Below, one piece after another: positions 1,413-30,835 of a DNA stretch of 64,000 nucleotides. The position numbers and the translations under genes were made by a program. The notes beneath the pieces were generated by a model that was not told the DNA's origin, ran no database searches, and worked only from the letters and a program-made list of their open reading frames with translations. Each line of letters begins with the position of its first letter. The first letter of the stretch is position 1. The DNA lies in NCBI RefSeq assembly GCF_020360975.1, contig NW_025408668.1, positions 4,712,001 to 4,776,000 on the forward strand, written 5' to 3'. This DNA is from Hirsutella rhossiliensis. Lineage: Eukaryota; Ascomycota; Sordariomycetes; Hypocreales; Ophiocordycipitaceae.

Positions 1413-1955
1413 GTTTACAAGCAAGCGACATGAGACAGTAGAGTGAACCCTTGACAAAGTCTCAATTCAGTTTACAAGTATTCACATCCGTTTACAAGAT
1501 AACTCTCTTCAAGTAATCTACACTGAATGATCGCCGCCGGAGGCCTCCTTCACGACTACGAAATCAATCCCCCGCAAGGGGGTGCACACGGGCCGAAGGA
1601 CCGGGTGTGGAGAGCCGCACTGACGGGACTTCAATCCAGTAAACCTGTTCACAAGGGAATTCACACAGGACGAGAGGAGCAGGTGTCCCAACGGGCACGC
1701 GACGGACAGAACACAGAAAACACACGCACCAAACAAACGCAAGTCACTTCACCGCACAAGCACACGGACAAAATACACACTGGGCCCGCGACGGGAAGGA
1801 GCATTGTCTGAGCCGGAGGCGAGTTGACGACCGGAGGGAAGTCAGAGGTACACGACAGGAAGGAGTGGACACAAAGAGACGGGAGGTCGCTTTGACTGCC
1901 GCGCCCCCTATATACTTAAGTTTGGTTTATAGGGGGCCATGGCACAACGGCCCAG
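1413..1955 (+). repeat. Cassette 3' structured module, copy 1
   Basis: GTTTACAAG occurs at 1413, 1470 and 1490, with GTTCACAAG at 1647. Hairpins: H1 1569-1582 (CCCCC-GCAA-GGGGG), H2 1589-1603 (CGG-g-CC-GAA-GG-a-CCG), H3 1683-1698, H4 1872-1894 (CAAAG.GAC/GTC.CTTTG). The long palindrome is at 1903-1937 and is followed by ACGGCCCAG. CTGGGCC near 1784 can pair with that GGCCCAG to close the module. No protein is evident here. Whether it is a 3' UTR, a separate RNA or a DNA structure cannot be told from the sequence alone. Confidence 0.7.
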
Positions 1956-2094
1956 CCCATAGACAGGTTGCTTTAGCTTCCATGTAGTACTAGACCGAAG
2001 GGAGGGGAACGAGTGCAGGTGGTCATAGCAGCTGATTGGACGGGACGGACAACGCTGGTCATCCATCCAGCTTCCCAAAGGGTTGCATGGATCC

Positions 2095-2165
2095 ACCTAC
2101 GTCCGGGGGGAGCGCCCGGACATTTCACATACACAGAGGGTATAAAGACCCGGGGTCGCCCATTG
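2095..2165 (+). promoter_or_regulatory. Cassette 2 promoter
   Basis: Palindrome GTCCGGGGGGAGCGCCCGGAC at about 2101-2121, then TATAAAG at 2141-2147 directly followed by a CCCGGGGTCGCCC block where transcription should start. Confidence 0.65.
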
Positions 2166-2169
2166 CAAG

Positions 2170-2590
2170 AGCATCCGGATGTTCTTCCTCTTCCTCTTTA
2201 TTTCACCCGTGAGGGACATGGTGGCTTCGCCACGACTCGGAAGGTGAGGATTTCAAACGGCCGGGAGGCCCACTGATGATGGTGGCTTCGCCACAACTAG
2301 ATGGTACCGGTATCTTCAACTGGATGTTCAGAGACAAGAGACTCCTTGACTTGGCCGGGAAGGCTTTACACGGGAATGTGGTGAGTGCGAACGAGGAAGG
2401 CATCTTCTTGATTCTCTTCCGATCCGAGCGGATCAGACGAGAGTCTTCTGCAGGCTTAGTTGGACAAGTGTCCACGGCACTCCCACTGCGCCCTACACGG
2501 GCTTCGTTTACCGTTTGCTCCCGGTAACATATCTTGAACATGCGTTCAACACCGCAAGGGTGTCTCACTGACGGCGTCACCACGGCCTAG
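2170..2590 (+). ncRNA. Hairpin-rich insert of cassette 2, candidate structured RNA
   Basis: There is no convincing protein. The stretch holds GTGGC-TTC-GCCAC twice (2221-2233 and 2282-2294), GATCC-GAGC-GGATC (2421-2434), TGAAC-ATGC-GTTCA (2535-2548) and ACACC-GCAA-GG(g)TGT near 2549-2563. The second half matches the insert of cassette 16 (29.4-29.6 kb) at nucleotide level with the same hairpins. The short ORFs at 2013-2276 and 2276-2527 match only where the nucleotides do. I therefore favour a non-coding RNA, but a decayed protein gene remains possible. Confidence 0.45.
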
Positions 2591-3100
2591 AGGACGTCAA
2601 CGCACTTTCAAACCTGGCTCTTTTGTAGAGCCTCGTGCACGACAGGGACGGGGAGCACACACGGCCAGTGGTGACTTGTCTTCTTTTCTTGTCTTGTGCA
2701 AGGCGGCACAAGGTTGCCCCGTTCAGCCACCCGGCAGTTTCAACACGTGAGGGTCTCGGCAACGTCCTTCTTGGCCTTTTCTTTACCAAGTGGTAAATGA
2801 TTTCCTCCTTTTTTCCAGAGAGAGGGTACTTTTGCTTTATACGCACAGGGCTTGACAAGTGTGGAAGTGAGGAGACGAACTGTCAGAACGAGCTTGACGG
2901 GAGGGACTTTTCATTGATCCTAGGAAACACCAGGCGGACAGCCCCGCTCACACCCAAGACGGCACTCACGATGCCCTCACTCGTAGACAAACACCCGTAG
3001 ACGGGCAGATAGAGATAGAGATAGTGACCGCGAGGGAGCATGGCTAGTCAGAGGCAGCTTCGGCCAGGTTCTGCAAGCTTCCATGCACATATCCACTACT
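2591..3100 (+). other. Gene-less stretch with conserved TCACGATGCCYTCA word
   Basis: No gene seen. CTCACGATGCCCTCAC at about 2966-2981 is one of five copies of this word, found between the insert and the 3' module of cassettes 2, 7, 14, 15 and 16. A short GATAGA microsatellite lies near 3006-3024. Confidence 0.5.
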
Positions 3101-3102
3101 CA

Positions 3103-3180
3103 CCGGGCGTGAGACCCGGACAGTTGACCCTTGAAGGGTATAAAGGCACCCGCTGCCGCCCCCCCTTCCAACACACATGT
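3103..3180 (+). promoter_or_regulatory. Promoter of an empty cassette
   Basis: CCGGGCGTGAGACCCGG at 3103-3119, TATAAAGG at 3139-3146, then CGCTGCCGCCCCCCC. The 3' module begins only about 90 bases further on, leaving no room for a gene. It is a second promoter inside cassette 2. Confidence 0.65.
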
Positions 3181-28890: not shown

Positions 28891-28922
28891 CAACCGCCCC
28901 ACACTCTAGTCACACGGAGCAT

Positions 28923-29115
28923 CACGTGGGATGTATTACGCGCAACGGACGGGACAGAAGTACAGCGGTCGTAAGACCAAGAACCCAGCGGGGTAATGGT
29001 CGGTCAACTGCGGGTTGCGACAGCCTTCCATGCAGTCTAATGCTTGAACATGTTCAAGCACAAAGTGGAGACACTGGCACCGAGAGGTATATAGAGGGGG
29101 GAGGCCCCCCTCACA
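28923..29115 (+). promoter_or_regulatory. Cassette 16 promoter with a different palindrome
   Basis: CACGTG 28923-28928. At 29041-29060, where other cassettes have a GGG..CCC palindrome, stands a perfect 20-base palindrome (TGCTTGAACA and its complement). TATATAGAG at about 29088-29096 is followed by GGGGGGAGGCCCCCC. CGGACA is missing. Confidence 0.65.
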
Positions 29116-29117
29116 CA

Positions 29118-29600
29118 CTTAACAGAACCCCGGCTGGTTCTTTTCCTCTTTCCCTCTCCCTTTCACCCGGGAAGGGTATAGAGGCGCTGCCGCCCCTCGA
29201 CTCGAGACGACATCAAGTAATGAACACTCCCGTGAGGGTCACTGCCTAAATACAGGATGGTTGACTCTTTCACTGAGCCGGGGAAGCTTTACTGATAGTG
29301 GCTTCGCCACGACTCGACGGCAGGAGAGGGATAAGAGAGGTGGTAGCCCCTTTACTACAGACGATGCTTTTTCCTATAGCCCGGGAGGGTTTGGTCGAGA
29401 AGACAGTAAGTGGGAACGAGGGAGGAATCTTTCTTCAGGATCCGAGCGGATCAGAACAACAGTCTTGCGGTGGCTTAGTTGGACAAGTGTTCACTCCACA
29501 CTCTCCCCACGCCCTAGACGGGCTTCGACTCGTTTTGTTCCCGGGAACATATCTTGAACATGCGTTCAACAACCTTTGCGGGTGCCTCACCACAGACTTT
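29118..29600 (+). ncRNA. Hairpin-rich insert of cassette 16, candidate structured RNA
   Basis: GAACC..GGTTC 29125-29140, GGCG-CTG-CCGCC near 29186, GTGGC-TTC-GCCAC 29298-29310, GATCC-GAGC-GGATC 29439-29452, TGAAC-ATGC-GTTCA 29565-29578. The last two and the text between them match cassette 2. A 174-codon ORF (29298-29822) exists but resembles cassette 2 only where the hairpins are conserved. Confidence 0.45.
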
Positions 29601-30245
29601 ATTGTGGCTAAAGACCTAGAGACTTTCTCTTTTCTTTTACTATGCTATAAAATATGTATCCTTTCTCTTTTCTTTGTGAAAACGTACGGTCAGATACCGT
29701 CGCGAGGTGTAGGCCCAGTCACCCCTCTTTCACGTGGACGGAAGGAGGTTTTCTTTTCATCTTCGGCTGTGCCCGGCGTGAATGAACATCGCATGCGTTG
29801 CATTGCCGGACGGCATGTGTAGTCGGAGCACAAATCGGATGCAGAGTCGTTTTGCAGAGCGATATCCGTGTATACACCGCACTTTTCCTGAAAACGTGTC
29901 GTGAATAGCTTCACTTCCTTTTGTAGACATGTAGATGCACACCGGAGAAAAGTCGGGACGAAGTTCCAGTGACTAGCGGAACGAAGCAGTGTAGCAGCAG
30001 ATCATCGTAATTGATTGGATCTTTGATCTTTCATCTATTATATGCCGTACCTAACCACCGGTTGAGTCACCACACTAAAGTGATGTGATAAACTTCTCGA
30101 TGCATTTATAAGAAGACCTAAAGAGCGACGCGAGGAGCGACTCTATGATGCGACGGGGAAGGAGCAATATCGGAAGTCTTTATAGGAATACTCTAGGACA
30201 CTCACGATGCCTTCACTTAAGCCGACGGGGAAGGATCTCTACTTA
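29601..30245. other. Gene-less stretch before the last module
   Basis: No gene seen. CTCACGATGCCTTCAC occurs near 30199-30214. Confidence 0.4.
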
Positions 30246-30249
30246 GACC

Positions 30250-30835
30250 GTTTACAAGCACACTTGAAAGATAGGGTACTTGAAATTGTTTTCAAGTTCA
30301 CCCTATACGTTTACAAGATAATTCACTTTAAGCACTCGACTCTAATGACCACCTCCGGATTCCTCCAGCGTTTACAAGATAATACTTTCCAAGCGCTACC
30401 AACAACCATTAACAATCCCTTCCGAGATACGAACACAACCCCCCCAAAGGGGGGTGCGCACGCGCCGTAGGTGCGGGTGTGGAGAGCCACACTCACAATC
30501 TTCAATCTAGTAAATCAGTTTACAAGACACCTCAACACCACGGGAGGAGCACGCATCCGCAAGGGTGCGCGACGGACAAGAACAAACACGTGCACTACAC
30601 TACACACACCCTTCCAAACAAACACAAGGTCACTCGCCCATACACTTTACATATAAACACTACCCGTTGGCCTCGAGCGGAGCGAGACGAACGACCGGAG
30701 GGAGCCCTAACCGGAGGTCAAAGGGACCGAAGCCGGAGGCGGAGGACAGGAGAGGGACGGAGTTCCCTCTACCCCATGGCCCCCTATCACTTAAGTTTAG
30801 TTATAGGGTCCCAGTGCACCAGGCACCAGGGCAGC
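30250..30835 (+). repeat. Cassette 3' structured module, copy 15
   Basis: GTTTACAAG 30250, 30309, 30370 and 30518. H1 30440-30454 (CCCCCC-AAA-GGGGGG), H2 30461-30475 (CGC-g-CC-GTA-GG-t-GCG), H3 30553-30568 (GCATCC-GCAA-GGGTGC, GNRA), H4 30751-30770. The palindrome at 30778-30811 is damaged in its right arm. CACGTG follows at 30858-30863, just before RIP begins. Confidence 0.7.

What the first reader, a model, noticed from the sequence alone, without database searches (positions are those of the whole stretch)
1413..30835. Covarying hairpins with GNRA and GNA loops: candidate new structured RNA family
Seen: H2 is always stem-g-CC-GNA-GG-n-stem, while the outer stem changes on both sides together (CAG/CTG, CGC/GCG, CTGA/TCAG, CTAG/CTAG, CGA/TCG, CGG/CCG). 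H3 is GCATCC/GGGTGC or GCGTCC/GGGCGC with loops GTGA, GCAA or GGAA. H1 varies as CCCCC/GGGGG, ACCTCC/GGAGGT, ACACCC/GGGTGT, ACTCC/GGAGT. Compensatory change with GNRA-type loops is a mark of selected RNA structure; GNRA loops have no known reason to be kept in duplex DNA. Inference: each module is transcribed and folded, as a 3' UTR element or a separate RNA of roughly 300-400 nt.
Basis: seen in the sequence. Interest (0 to 1): 0.95.

Follow-up and report, generated by a model that had tools for sequence, protein, structure and literature searches.

The report
Many-segment fungal ssDNA virus cassette array
The folded repeats sit in the shared non-coding part of dozens of nearly equal-length DNA units, two of which encode virus-type replication and coat proteins, lined up end to end at a putative replication-origin hairpin in a fungal chromosome.

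Summary
The hairpins and H2's covariation are real, but the RNA-family reading misses the context. The 15 modules belong to an array: 183 copies of the H4 hairpin core genome-wide, and of the 100 listed 95 lie on one chromosome and 5 on another, in what I take to be Hirsutella rhossiliensis, a nematode-killing fungus. Of 79 complete units read, 72 are 1869-1972 bp. Ends are shared; middles differ: 57 DNA types, 28-31 groups by protein likeness. One unit type encodes a Geminivirus/Genomovirus-type Rep; another an Arg-rich protein whose H. minnesotensis relative's model matches CRESS-DNA capsids. Copies of one unit usually stop being alike at the H4 core, so units seem joined, like cassettes, at a putative origin. 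H1-H3 thus belong to the common region of a segmented circular ssDNA-type element. Loops are mostly C-GNA-G or C-GNNA-G, almost only on the ORF-sense strand. Most likely they fold in single-stranded viral DNA as repeated recognition (packaging or strand-conversion) signals; a role in mRNA is not excluded. Known segmented genomoviruses have 3-4 segments, nanoviruses 6-8. The number of unit types and the origin-joined array look new, but I cannot show that units replicate or belong to one virus.

The parts
1..30900 (+). Head-to-tail array of units of about 1.93 kb, each: shared 5' part, TATA-like box in some units, unit-specific middle, shared tail with H1-H3, origin-like hairpin H4. Two spans in the window are irregular (3183 and 2801 bp between H4 cores)
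13495..13530 (+). H4 (example): GGCCCCCTAT / ATAGGGGGCC stem with loop holding CTTAAGTTTGG; putative replication origin and unit junction. The other 13 in the window have TTAAG at 1916, 3821, 5756, 7679, 9583, 11555, 16691, 18378, 20323, 23124, 25063, 26995, 28855
13145..13159 (+). H1 (example), CCCCCC-AAA-GGGGGG; GNA is the commonest loop in other copies
13160..13186 (+). H2 (example): outer stem / purine mismatch / inner stem / G mismatch / CC-GNA-GG. Other distinct copies: 1583-1609, 3477-3503, 11162-11188, 26624-26650, 28439-28465
16466..16481 (+). H3 (example) GCATCC-GTGA-GGGTGC. Other exact matches to the pattern: 24805-24820, 26722-26737, 30553-30568
13026..13076 (+). GTTTACAAG direct repeats in the tail; 34 in the window, all on + strand; 2-4 per tail in 88 of 105 tails (looser pattern)
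4203..5081 (+). ORF of unit 3851-5785, 292 aa; the one protein search found only its own record
14188..14727 (+). ORF with Rad52/Rad22 match (E 4.8e-6); an ORF of another unit scores 5e-17
7742..8947 (+). longest ORF of unit 7709-9612 (401 codons from a GTG); two other copies of this unit are 100% and 99.58% identical, gaps not counted
10193..10786 (+). ORF of unit 9613-11584, whose middle belongs to a group of seven unit types with protein likeness
16721..18407 (+). unit that carries a 5S rRNA gene at 17589-17708

Best explanation
Each module is one unit of a heavily segmented, circular ssDNA (CRESS-DNA, genomovirus-like) element that sits as an origin-joined array in the chromosome of H. rhossiliensis. 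H4 is the rolling-circle origin where Rep nicks and rejoins. Units were linked to each other, or inserted one after another, at H4, which keeps the period at unit length and puts different genes side by side. H1-H3 and the repeated CC-G(N)NA-GG cores near H4 are the common region of the segments. On the ORF-sense strand they fold as DNA mini-hairpins and are read by one viral protein, most likely the capsid protein, so that any segment bearing them is packaged (or its second strand started). Shown: unit structure, Rep-type and capsid-like genes, junctions mostly at the H4 core, H2 covariation, GNA loops with C-G closure, strand polarity. Inferred: that the element replicates or did so recently, the nick site, joining by Rep, that the strand folded is virion DNA, and the packaging role.
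For: 79 complete units (spacing 1600-2250 bp), median 1927, 69 of 79 at 1886-1967 bp, with 57 distinct middles in 28 or 31 groups by protein likeness. Rep piece: Gemini_AL1_M E 9.5e-8; H. minnesotensis HIM_11832 carries Gemini_AL1 and Gemini_AL1_M over cut-off. Relatives: 22 Rep proteins, five of them H. rhossiliensis records, others from Hirsutella minnesotensis, Aphanocladium album and short contigs; 8 capsid-type proteins, one from H. minnesotensis and seven on contigs of 1.1-1.6 kb. Capsid-type model of the H. minnesotensis relative: the named ones among the 50 best viral matches are mostly capsid proteins of CRESS, circo- or genomoviruses; the only PDB match with probability 1.00 among the 50 shown is STNV coat, rank 4, TMt 0.52. 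In 28 pairs of copies of the same unit the shared run left of TTAAG is 21 nt or less in 24, and the run from TTAAG rightward is exactly 23 nt in 18. Neighbouring sequence differs (under 90% alike) on the left in 25 and on the right in 26 of 28; own 150 bp are 95% or more alike at the 5' end in 23 and at the 3' end in 18; all four hold in 15 of 28, or 9 of 17 with one pair per unit type. 56 of 57 neighbouring complete units differ in type. CCGNAGG: 365 on the sense strand of tails, 25 on the other, 48 and 34 in the middles; with three flanking pairs (loops of 3 or 4) 148 of 402, 1 of 33, 3 of 128, 1 of 62. GNA triloops closed by C-G: 75 of 75 in tails, 4 of 9 in middles; mirror loop TNC 4 in tails, 19 in middles.
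Against: No free circle, virion or transcript could be tested. In 10 of 28 pairs the own 3' tail is under 95% alike (0.53-0.92), so exchange also happens inside tails, not only at H4. Folding energy of the H1-H3 stretch is only weakly low, and lower as RNA than as DNA (mean z -1.10 against -0.69 on the sense strand; -0.38 and -0.48 on the other, 24 of 52 stretches). T-G or G-T pairs in H3 and in the outer H2 stem, and 9 of 10 Watson-Crick-only GNNA tetraloops being GNRA, suit RNA too. In 19 of 57 unit types the longest ORF is antisense, and antisense frames gave nearly as many protein matches as sense ones (177 against 221), so some units may carry no gene or a decayed one. 4 of 19 array ORFs scanned have a Pfam family over cut-off. 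Some Rep copies hold stops. No relative in IMG/VR by two protein scans and one pattern scan.
Confidence: 0.66

Rival explanations
1. Same viral units, but the hairpins work in RNA: a 3' UTR element in each segment's mRNA that controls stability, export, 3' end or translation.
For: Hairpins lie downstream of the ORFs on the sense strand; T-G pair kept in 32 of 33 H3 stems (my reading); RNA folding z more negative on the sense strand (-1.10 against -0.38); 9 of 10 Watson-Crick-only GNNA loops are GNRA.
Against: Loops are mostly GNA with C-G closure (75 of 75), a stable DNA form; 6 of 22 H3 tetraloops are not GNRA; no G-T in the variable inner pairs of H2; the same core also clusters 50-150 bases upstream of H4.
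Confidence: 0.23
2. Hairpins are the start site for second-strand synthesis (like the single-strand origins of rolling-circle plasmids) rather than packaging signals.
For: The cores lie in set distance classes upstream of H4; such origins are folded ssDNA (recalled).
Against: Several degenerate copies of one core, as expected of multiple protein sites, rather than one large structure.
Confidence: 0.2
3. An ordinary host gene family or transposon with conserved UTRs, unrelated to viruses.
For: All lies in a chromosome; Rad52-like and Zn_ribbon_3CxxC units.
Against: Rep and capsid-type units with the same ends and length; many unit middles without likeness to each other; junctions at H4.
Confidence: 0.04
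4. Assembly artefact: free viral circles wrongly joined into the chromosome.
For: Repetitive units; 24 of 28 copy pairs are 98.7-100% identical, gaps not counted.
Against: A TIR transposon inside one unit (window about 20503-22625, read by eye), inversions and irregular spacings; an identical window protein listed on two contigs, the longest 12,525,496 bases, which I take to be a second assembly.
Confidence: 0.06

Closest known systems
Botrytis cinerea ssDNA virus 1 (segmented Genomoviridae; PMC10731770, passages)
   Same: One protein per segment, nearly equal lengths (about 1.7 kb), long (about 260 nt) and short (about 38 nt) common regions shared by the segments, origin in a stem-loop of the short one; Rep of the Geminivirus/Genomovirus type
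   Different: Four segments against 57 unit types read here; no integration into the host in the passages seen ('integrat' and 'endogen' 0 times in the main text)
Fusarium graminearum gemytripvirus 1 (PMC9781238 and PMC11708013, listings and starts of abstracts)
   Same: Fungal, segmented, ssDNA
   Different: Three segments; described as an infecting virus
Nanoviridae (PMC9858847, start of abstract; PMC5680193, passages)
   Same: One gene per segment; common regions (BcssDV1 paper)
   Different: 6-8 segments of about 1 kb, plants; chromosomal arrays not mentioned in what I saw
STNV coat protein and its RNA contacts (PMC3593212, listing and start of abstract)
   Same: Beta-barrel coat protein with a positive N-terminal arm whose assembly depends on RNA contacts; STNV coat is the one PDB match with probability 1.00 among those shown. 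That these contacts are repeated stem-loops is recalled
   Different: RNA there; here proposed in DNA, binding untested. A paper testing the relevance of the in-vitro STNV-1 signals is listed too (PMC6475782, title and start of abstract only)
Integron cassette arrays (recalled)
   Same: Different genes in equal orientation, each with a folded single-strand site, joined at that site at one locus
   Different: No integrase found among the ORFs scanned; junction fits a Rep origin; eukaryotic host; some inversions
Polydnavirus-type proviral loci (recalled)
   Same: Many different segments clustered in a chromosome of a parasite of invertebrates
   Different: Much smaller segments, Rep and capsid-type genes inside the array, no evidence of delivery

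Membership tests
CRESS-DNA virus (Cressdnaviricota), Geminivirus/Genomovirus side | Rep with HUH endonuclease and SF3 helicase parts | tested here: met
   PF08283 in the ORF at C2:4442154, Walker-type motifs by my reading of the translation; Gemini_AL1 plus Gemini_AL1_M over cut-off in H. minnesotensis HIM_11832; an H. rhossiliensis Rep record gives PF00799 just below cut-off, 23.8 against 24 bits
CRESS-DNA virus (Cressdnaviricota), Geminivirus/Genomovirus side | jelly-roll capsid protein with basic N-terminus | tested here: met
   Arg-rich start; model of relative P0004, pLDDT 76, pTM 0.73, matches CRESS/Genomoviridae capsids with TM about 0.4-0.6. By fold only: Pfam gives no family, and the array's own protein was not modelled
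CRESS-DNA virus (Cressdnaviricota), Geminivirus/Genomovirus side | origin stem-loop with nicked nonanucleotide | tested here: inconclusive
   H4 is a stem-loop and the usual unit junction; TATTAC stands at the stem-loop border in most copies (arm CCCCTATTAC in 71 of 105) but is not invariant; nicking untested
Genomoviridae | placement in Rep phylogeny and free circular ssDNA virion | not tested
   No reference Rep set fetched; no virion data
Segmented virus: all units one genome | co-occurrence and need of all segments | not testable with these tools
   One intact and one broken capsid-type locus, at least five Rep lineages by identity level: several related elements may be mixed
Structured RNA family (Rfam) | match to a described family | tested here: not met
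   Only 5S rRNA at gathering level in the window; for 13020-13560 only GlsR5, 19 bits against a cut-off of 100
Structured RNA family (Rfam) | GNRA tetraloops | tested here: not met
   6 of 22 H3 tetraloops are GTCA/GACA; H1 and H2 are mostly GNA triloops; against this, 9 of 10 Watson-Crick-only GNNA loops in tails are GNRA
Structured RNA family (Rfam) | transcribed and folded as RNA | not testable with these tools
   no RNA data
Integron | tyrosine integrase and attC sites | tested here: inconclusive
   No integrase family among 19 array ORFs put to Pfam; most ORFs of the array were not scanned; attC not searched for

The most novel reading that the evidence does not exclude
A fungal cassette system: dozens to about a hundred single-gene ssDNA circles, stored and accumulated mainly at one chromosomal locus by Rep acting at the origin hairpin, integron-style, and packaged by hairpin signals made of DNA. 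At its boldest it is a domesticated particle system of a nematode-killing fungus that ships its cassettes into other cells, including the nematode.
Probability: 0.15. Interest if true: 0.97.

Novelty: new variant of a known kind. Interest (0 to 1): 0.85.

Why it matters
If the units are segments of one element, it would raise the segment number of ssDNA viruses from the 8 that I found in print to several dozen, testing ideas on the limits of multipartite genomes. It shows a eukaryotic array of different genes joined at origin-like hairpins, which suggests a way in which viral Rep can collect genes in a chromosome. And it offers a case where covarying hairpins, usually taken as a mark of functional RNA, may be selected in single-stranded DNA, with a loop rule (GNA/GNNA against GNRA) that can help to tell the two apart.

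Tried and rejected
Known RNA family: only 5S rRNA at gathering level and one far-below-threshold hit. Bacterial gene reading: dropped once the genome proved to be 82 Mb with a fungal Rep record on a contig of the same length. Folding energy of the H1-H3 stretch: weak, not used as support. The first protein clustering leaked through shared ends (55 of 57 units in one group) and was redone on the middles. Relatives in IMG/VR by capsid, Rep and H4 pattern: none. Literature: searches; none of their listings shows a Hirsutella ssDNA virus, and searches found no paper at all. The six papers were not opened. The H. minnesotensis genome paper has 'virus' and 'geminivir' 0 times in its main text (PMC4255773, term search). 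A review of mycoviruses of insect-killing fungi names Genomoviridae as the only ssDNA family reported to infect fungi (PMC12737583, passages). bioRxiv and most subscription papers are not held. The host name rests on a contig-length match (8,442,910 bases); the 18S search did not complete.

Mended after re-checking: the two 5S-bearing units look alike only over the 5S gene itself; the statement that copies stop being alike exactly at H4 was replaced by the counts, and confidence in the best explanation lowered from 0.68 to 0.66 because tails also exchange.

Rows dropped: 16 of 105 tails without H2 by pattern; 3 of 44 distinct H2 27-mers not given to the alignment (they are counted); 45 of 105 tails without the H3 anchor; 24 of 52 stretches folded; H4-to-H4 spans outside 1600-2250 bp left out of the 79 units. 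One search lists 100 of 183 places. Pairs are not independent (28 pairs from 17 unit types).
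Full report
What is there. The window is C2:4,712,001-4,776,000 of an 82-Mb, 40-contig genome. A protein record of Hirsutella rhossiliensis on a contig of exactly C2's length (8,442,910) names the host. The first 31 kb of the window holds 14 copies of the H4 core and, by my grouping, 14 tails with GTTTACAAG repeats, in 15 modules on one strand. Genome-wide the 24-base H4 core has 183 matches with up to 3 mismatches, against 0 for the reversed control; the 100 listed are all perfect, 95 on C2 and 5 on C12. 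A longer 31-base form has 54 matches, 53 on C2 between 4.388 and 4.732 Mb and 1 on C12. In the fetched part the cores run from C2 4.382 to 4.741 Mb.

Units. In 200 kb of C2 plus the window I found 105 H4 cores and 79 same-strand H4-to-H4 units of 1600-2250 bp: mean 1922, median 1927 bp, 72 of 79 between 1869 and 1972. Other spans are irregular, from 165 bp to about 7 kb, and strands change in places. The first 150-200 bp of a unit are matched on average by 8-14 other units, the last 500 or so by 8-70, and the middles by 1-2. The 79 units have 57 different middles. By protein likeness of the middles they fall into 31 or 28 groups, depending on trimming (largest 10 or 13, then 8, 7, four pairs, the rest single). 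These are groups of units, not proven genes: antisense frames gave 177 of 398 matches in the first run, and one link is the 5S gene shared by two units. A Chao1 estimate from 40 singletons and 13 doubletons is about 113 types, assuming random sampling, which an array may violate.

Viral genes. The unit at C2:4,441,549 encodes a Rep piece with PF08283, E 9.5e-8. Its 22 relatives (five of them H. rhossiliensis records) include H. minnesotensis and Aphanocladium album proteins, and eight are listed on contigs of 1.0-2.1 kb. H. minnesotensis HIM_11832 has both the Geminivirus Rep catalytic and central domains; its three PDB matches are named Rep or replication-associated protein (E 4e-4 to 6e-3). 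The unit at C2:4,458,084 encodes a 314-aa protein with an Arg-rich start and 8 relatives. A model of its H. minnesotensis relative (pLDDT 76, pTM 0.73) matches, in the viral library, proteins of which the named ones are mostly capsids of CRESS, circo- or genomoviruses (E down to 8.6e-10, TM mostly about 0.4-0.6; about half of the 50 shown are unnamed). In the PDB six matches pass E 0.001: five picornavirus coats with TM near 0.2 and STNV coat, rank 4, probability 1.00, TMt 0.52, rmsd 7.2. The H. minnesotensis Rep and capsid-type proteins carry neighbouring locus numbers (HIM_12210, HIM_12209) and are both listed with a 14,722-base contig. Of 19 array ORFs put to Pfam, 4 have a family over cut-off: the Rep piece, two Rad52/Rad22 (E 4.8e-6 and 5e-17) and one Zn_ribbon_3CxxC (E 6.6e-22). 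Rep has 19 matches in the genome, at least five lineages by identity level, some with stops. The capsid-type protein has one intact and one broken locus. So several related elements may be mixed; the count of unit types is not a proven segment count of one virus.

Junctions. I compared 28 pairs of copies of the same unit, from 17 unit types. 24 are 98.7-100% identical, two Rep pairs about 95%, and one pair each 87.1% and 76.6%, gaps not counted. 511 of 1119 differences are transitions, so there is no sign of the C-to-T excess that RIP would leave (the diverged pairs supply most differences). Going left, the shared run ends within 21 bases of TTAAG in 24 of 28 pairs. Going right it ends exactly 23 bases after the start of TTAAG in 18 of 28; the others run 20 or 32-60 bases, as few 5' flank types exist. 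By gapped alignment of 150 bp, the left neighbour's tail is under 90% alike in 25 of 28 and the right neighbour in 26, while the unit's own start is 95% or more alike in 23 and its own tail in 18; all four hold in 15 of 28, or 9 of 17 with one pair per type. Thus most copies change partners within CTTAAGTTTGGTTTATAGGGGGCC, the 5' arm of H4 going with the unit before and the 3' flank with the unit after, but tails are exchanged too in 10 of 28. 56 of 57 neighbouring complete units are of different type. Plain concatemers of one circle would give the opposite. I infer joining by Rep at the origin; homologous recombination in the longer shared tail would not by itself put most borders there.

Hairpins. 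H2 is a double stem: outer three pairs, a purine-purine mismatch in most copies (A-G 24, G-A 3, A-A 2, G-G 2 of 44), three variable inner pairs, a G facing T, A or G but never C (43 of 44; one A-T), then CC-GNA-GG. The inner pairs include CAG/CTG, CGC/GCG, CGA/TCG and CGG/CCG, and a tandem G-A variant in 7 of 44. Controls are given under the observation check. H3 has a similar plan, with T-G where H2 has its mismatch, and GNA (14) or GNNA (9) loops in 23 of the 33 with a stem. The core CCGNAGG is found 365 times on the sense strand of the 105 tails, 25 times on the other strand, and 48 and 34 times in the middles. Cores with loops of 3 or 4 and three flanking pairs number 148 of 402, 1 of 33, 3 of 128 and 1 of 62. 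GNA triloop hairpins in tails are closed by C-G in 75 of 75; the mirror loop TNC occurs 4 times there and 19 times in the middles. Tails are related to each other, so these are not independent trials, but the strand contrast is within the same sequences.

DNA or RNA. d(GNA) loops with C-G closure are a stable DNA family whose loop-closing contacts resemble GNRA in RNA (PMC5815330, passages); that DNA also favours d(cGNNAg) tetraloops is recalled. For DNA: triloops dominate, 6 of 22 H3 tetraloops are not GNRA, and no G-T in the variable inner pairs of H2. For RNA: the T-G of H3, 10 G-T cells in the outer H2 pairs and 21 of 44 at the mismatch, 9 of 10 Watson-Crick-only GNNA loops being GNRA (22 of 25 in the middles, so perhaps composition), and the more negative RNA z. 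I put DNA first at about two to one.

Mechanism. A segmented element needs a tag that lets one coat protein and one Rep serve many molecules. The tails supply several degenerate copies of one hairpin core on one strand in units of nearly equal length. STNV coat assembly depends on RNA-coat contacts (PMC3593212, start of abstract). So packaging recognition in virion DNA is my first choice; second-strand start and mRNA control follow.

Novelty. Segmented genomoviruses with 3 and 4 segments are known (PMC9781238, start of abstract; PMC10731770, passages), and 6-8 segments in nanoviruses is called an extreme case (PMC5680193, passages). I found no report of this array in the ten searches named under Tried and rejected; most subscription papers and all bioRxiv preprints are outside them.

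Noticed in passing
window 17589-17708; C2:4383143-4383262: Two of the genome's 21 5S rRNA matches lie inside array units, at nearly the same offset (868 and 871), one of them the best-scoring in the genome. The likeness of the two unit middles is the 5S gene itself. A segment may have taken up a host 5S gene.
   Followed up: partly
window about 20503-22625: A 2.1-kb TIR transposon (ends AGGGATTTTCC / GGAAAATCCCT, flanked by TA) sits inside one unit, read by eye.
   Followed up: no
window 44478-51864: Retrotransposon with RT and RNase H families at 46694-47785 and a repeated 21-mer at both ends; Ty3 type is my guess.
   Followed up: no
window 31000-44000 and 59000-64000: AT-rich stretches (GC 20-40%) that may be RIP-degraded repeats; the array beside them has GC of about 55%.
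   Followed up: no
C2:4430396 (unit 4430008) and window 14188-14727: Rad52-like ORFs on units of a Rep-type element, possibly linked to strand annealing or joining.
   Followed up: no
C2:1462743, C5:864305, C1:3462359: Rep-like stretches with several stops elsewhere in the genome.
   Followed up: no
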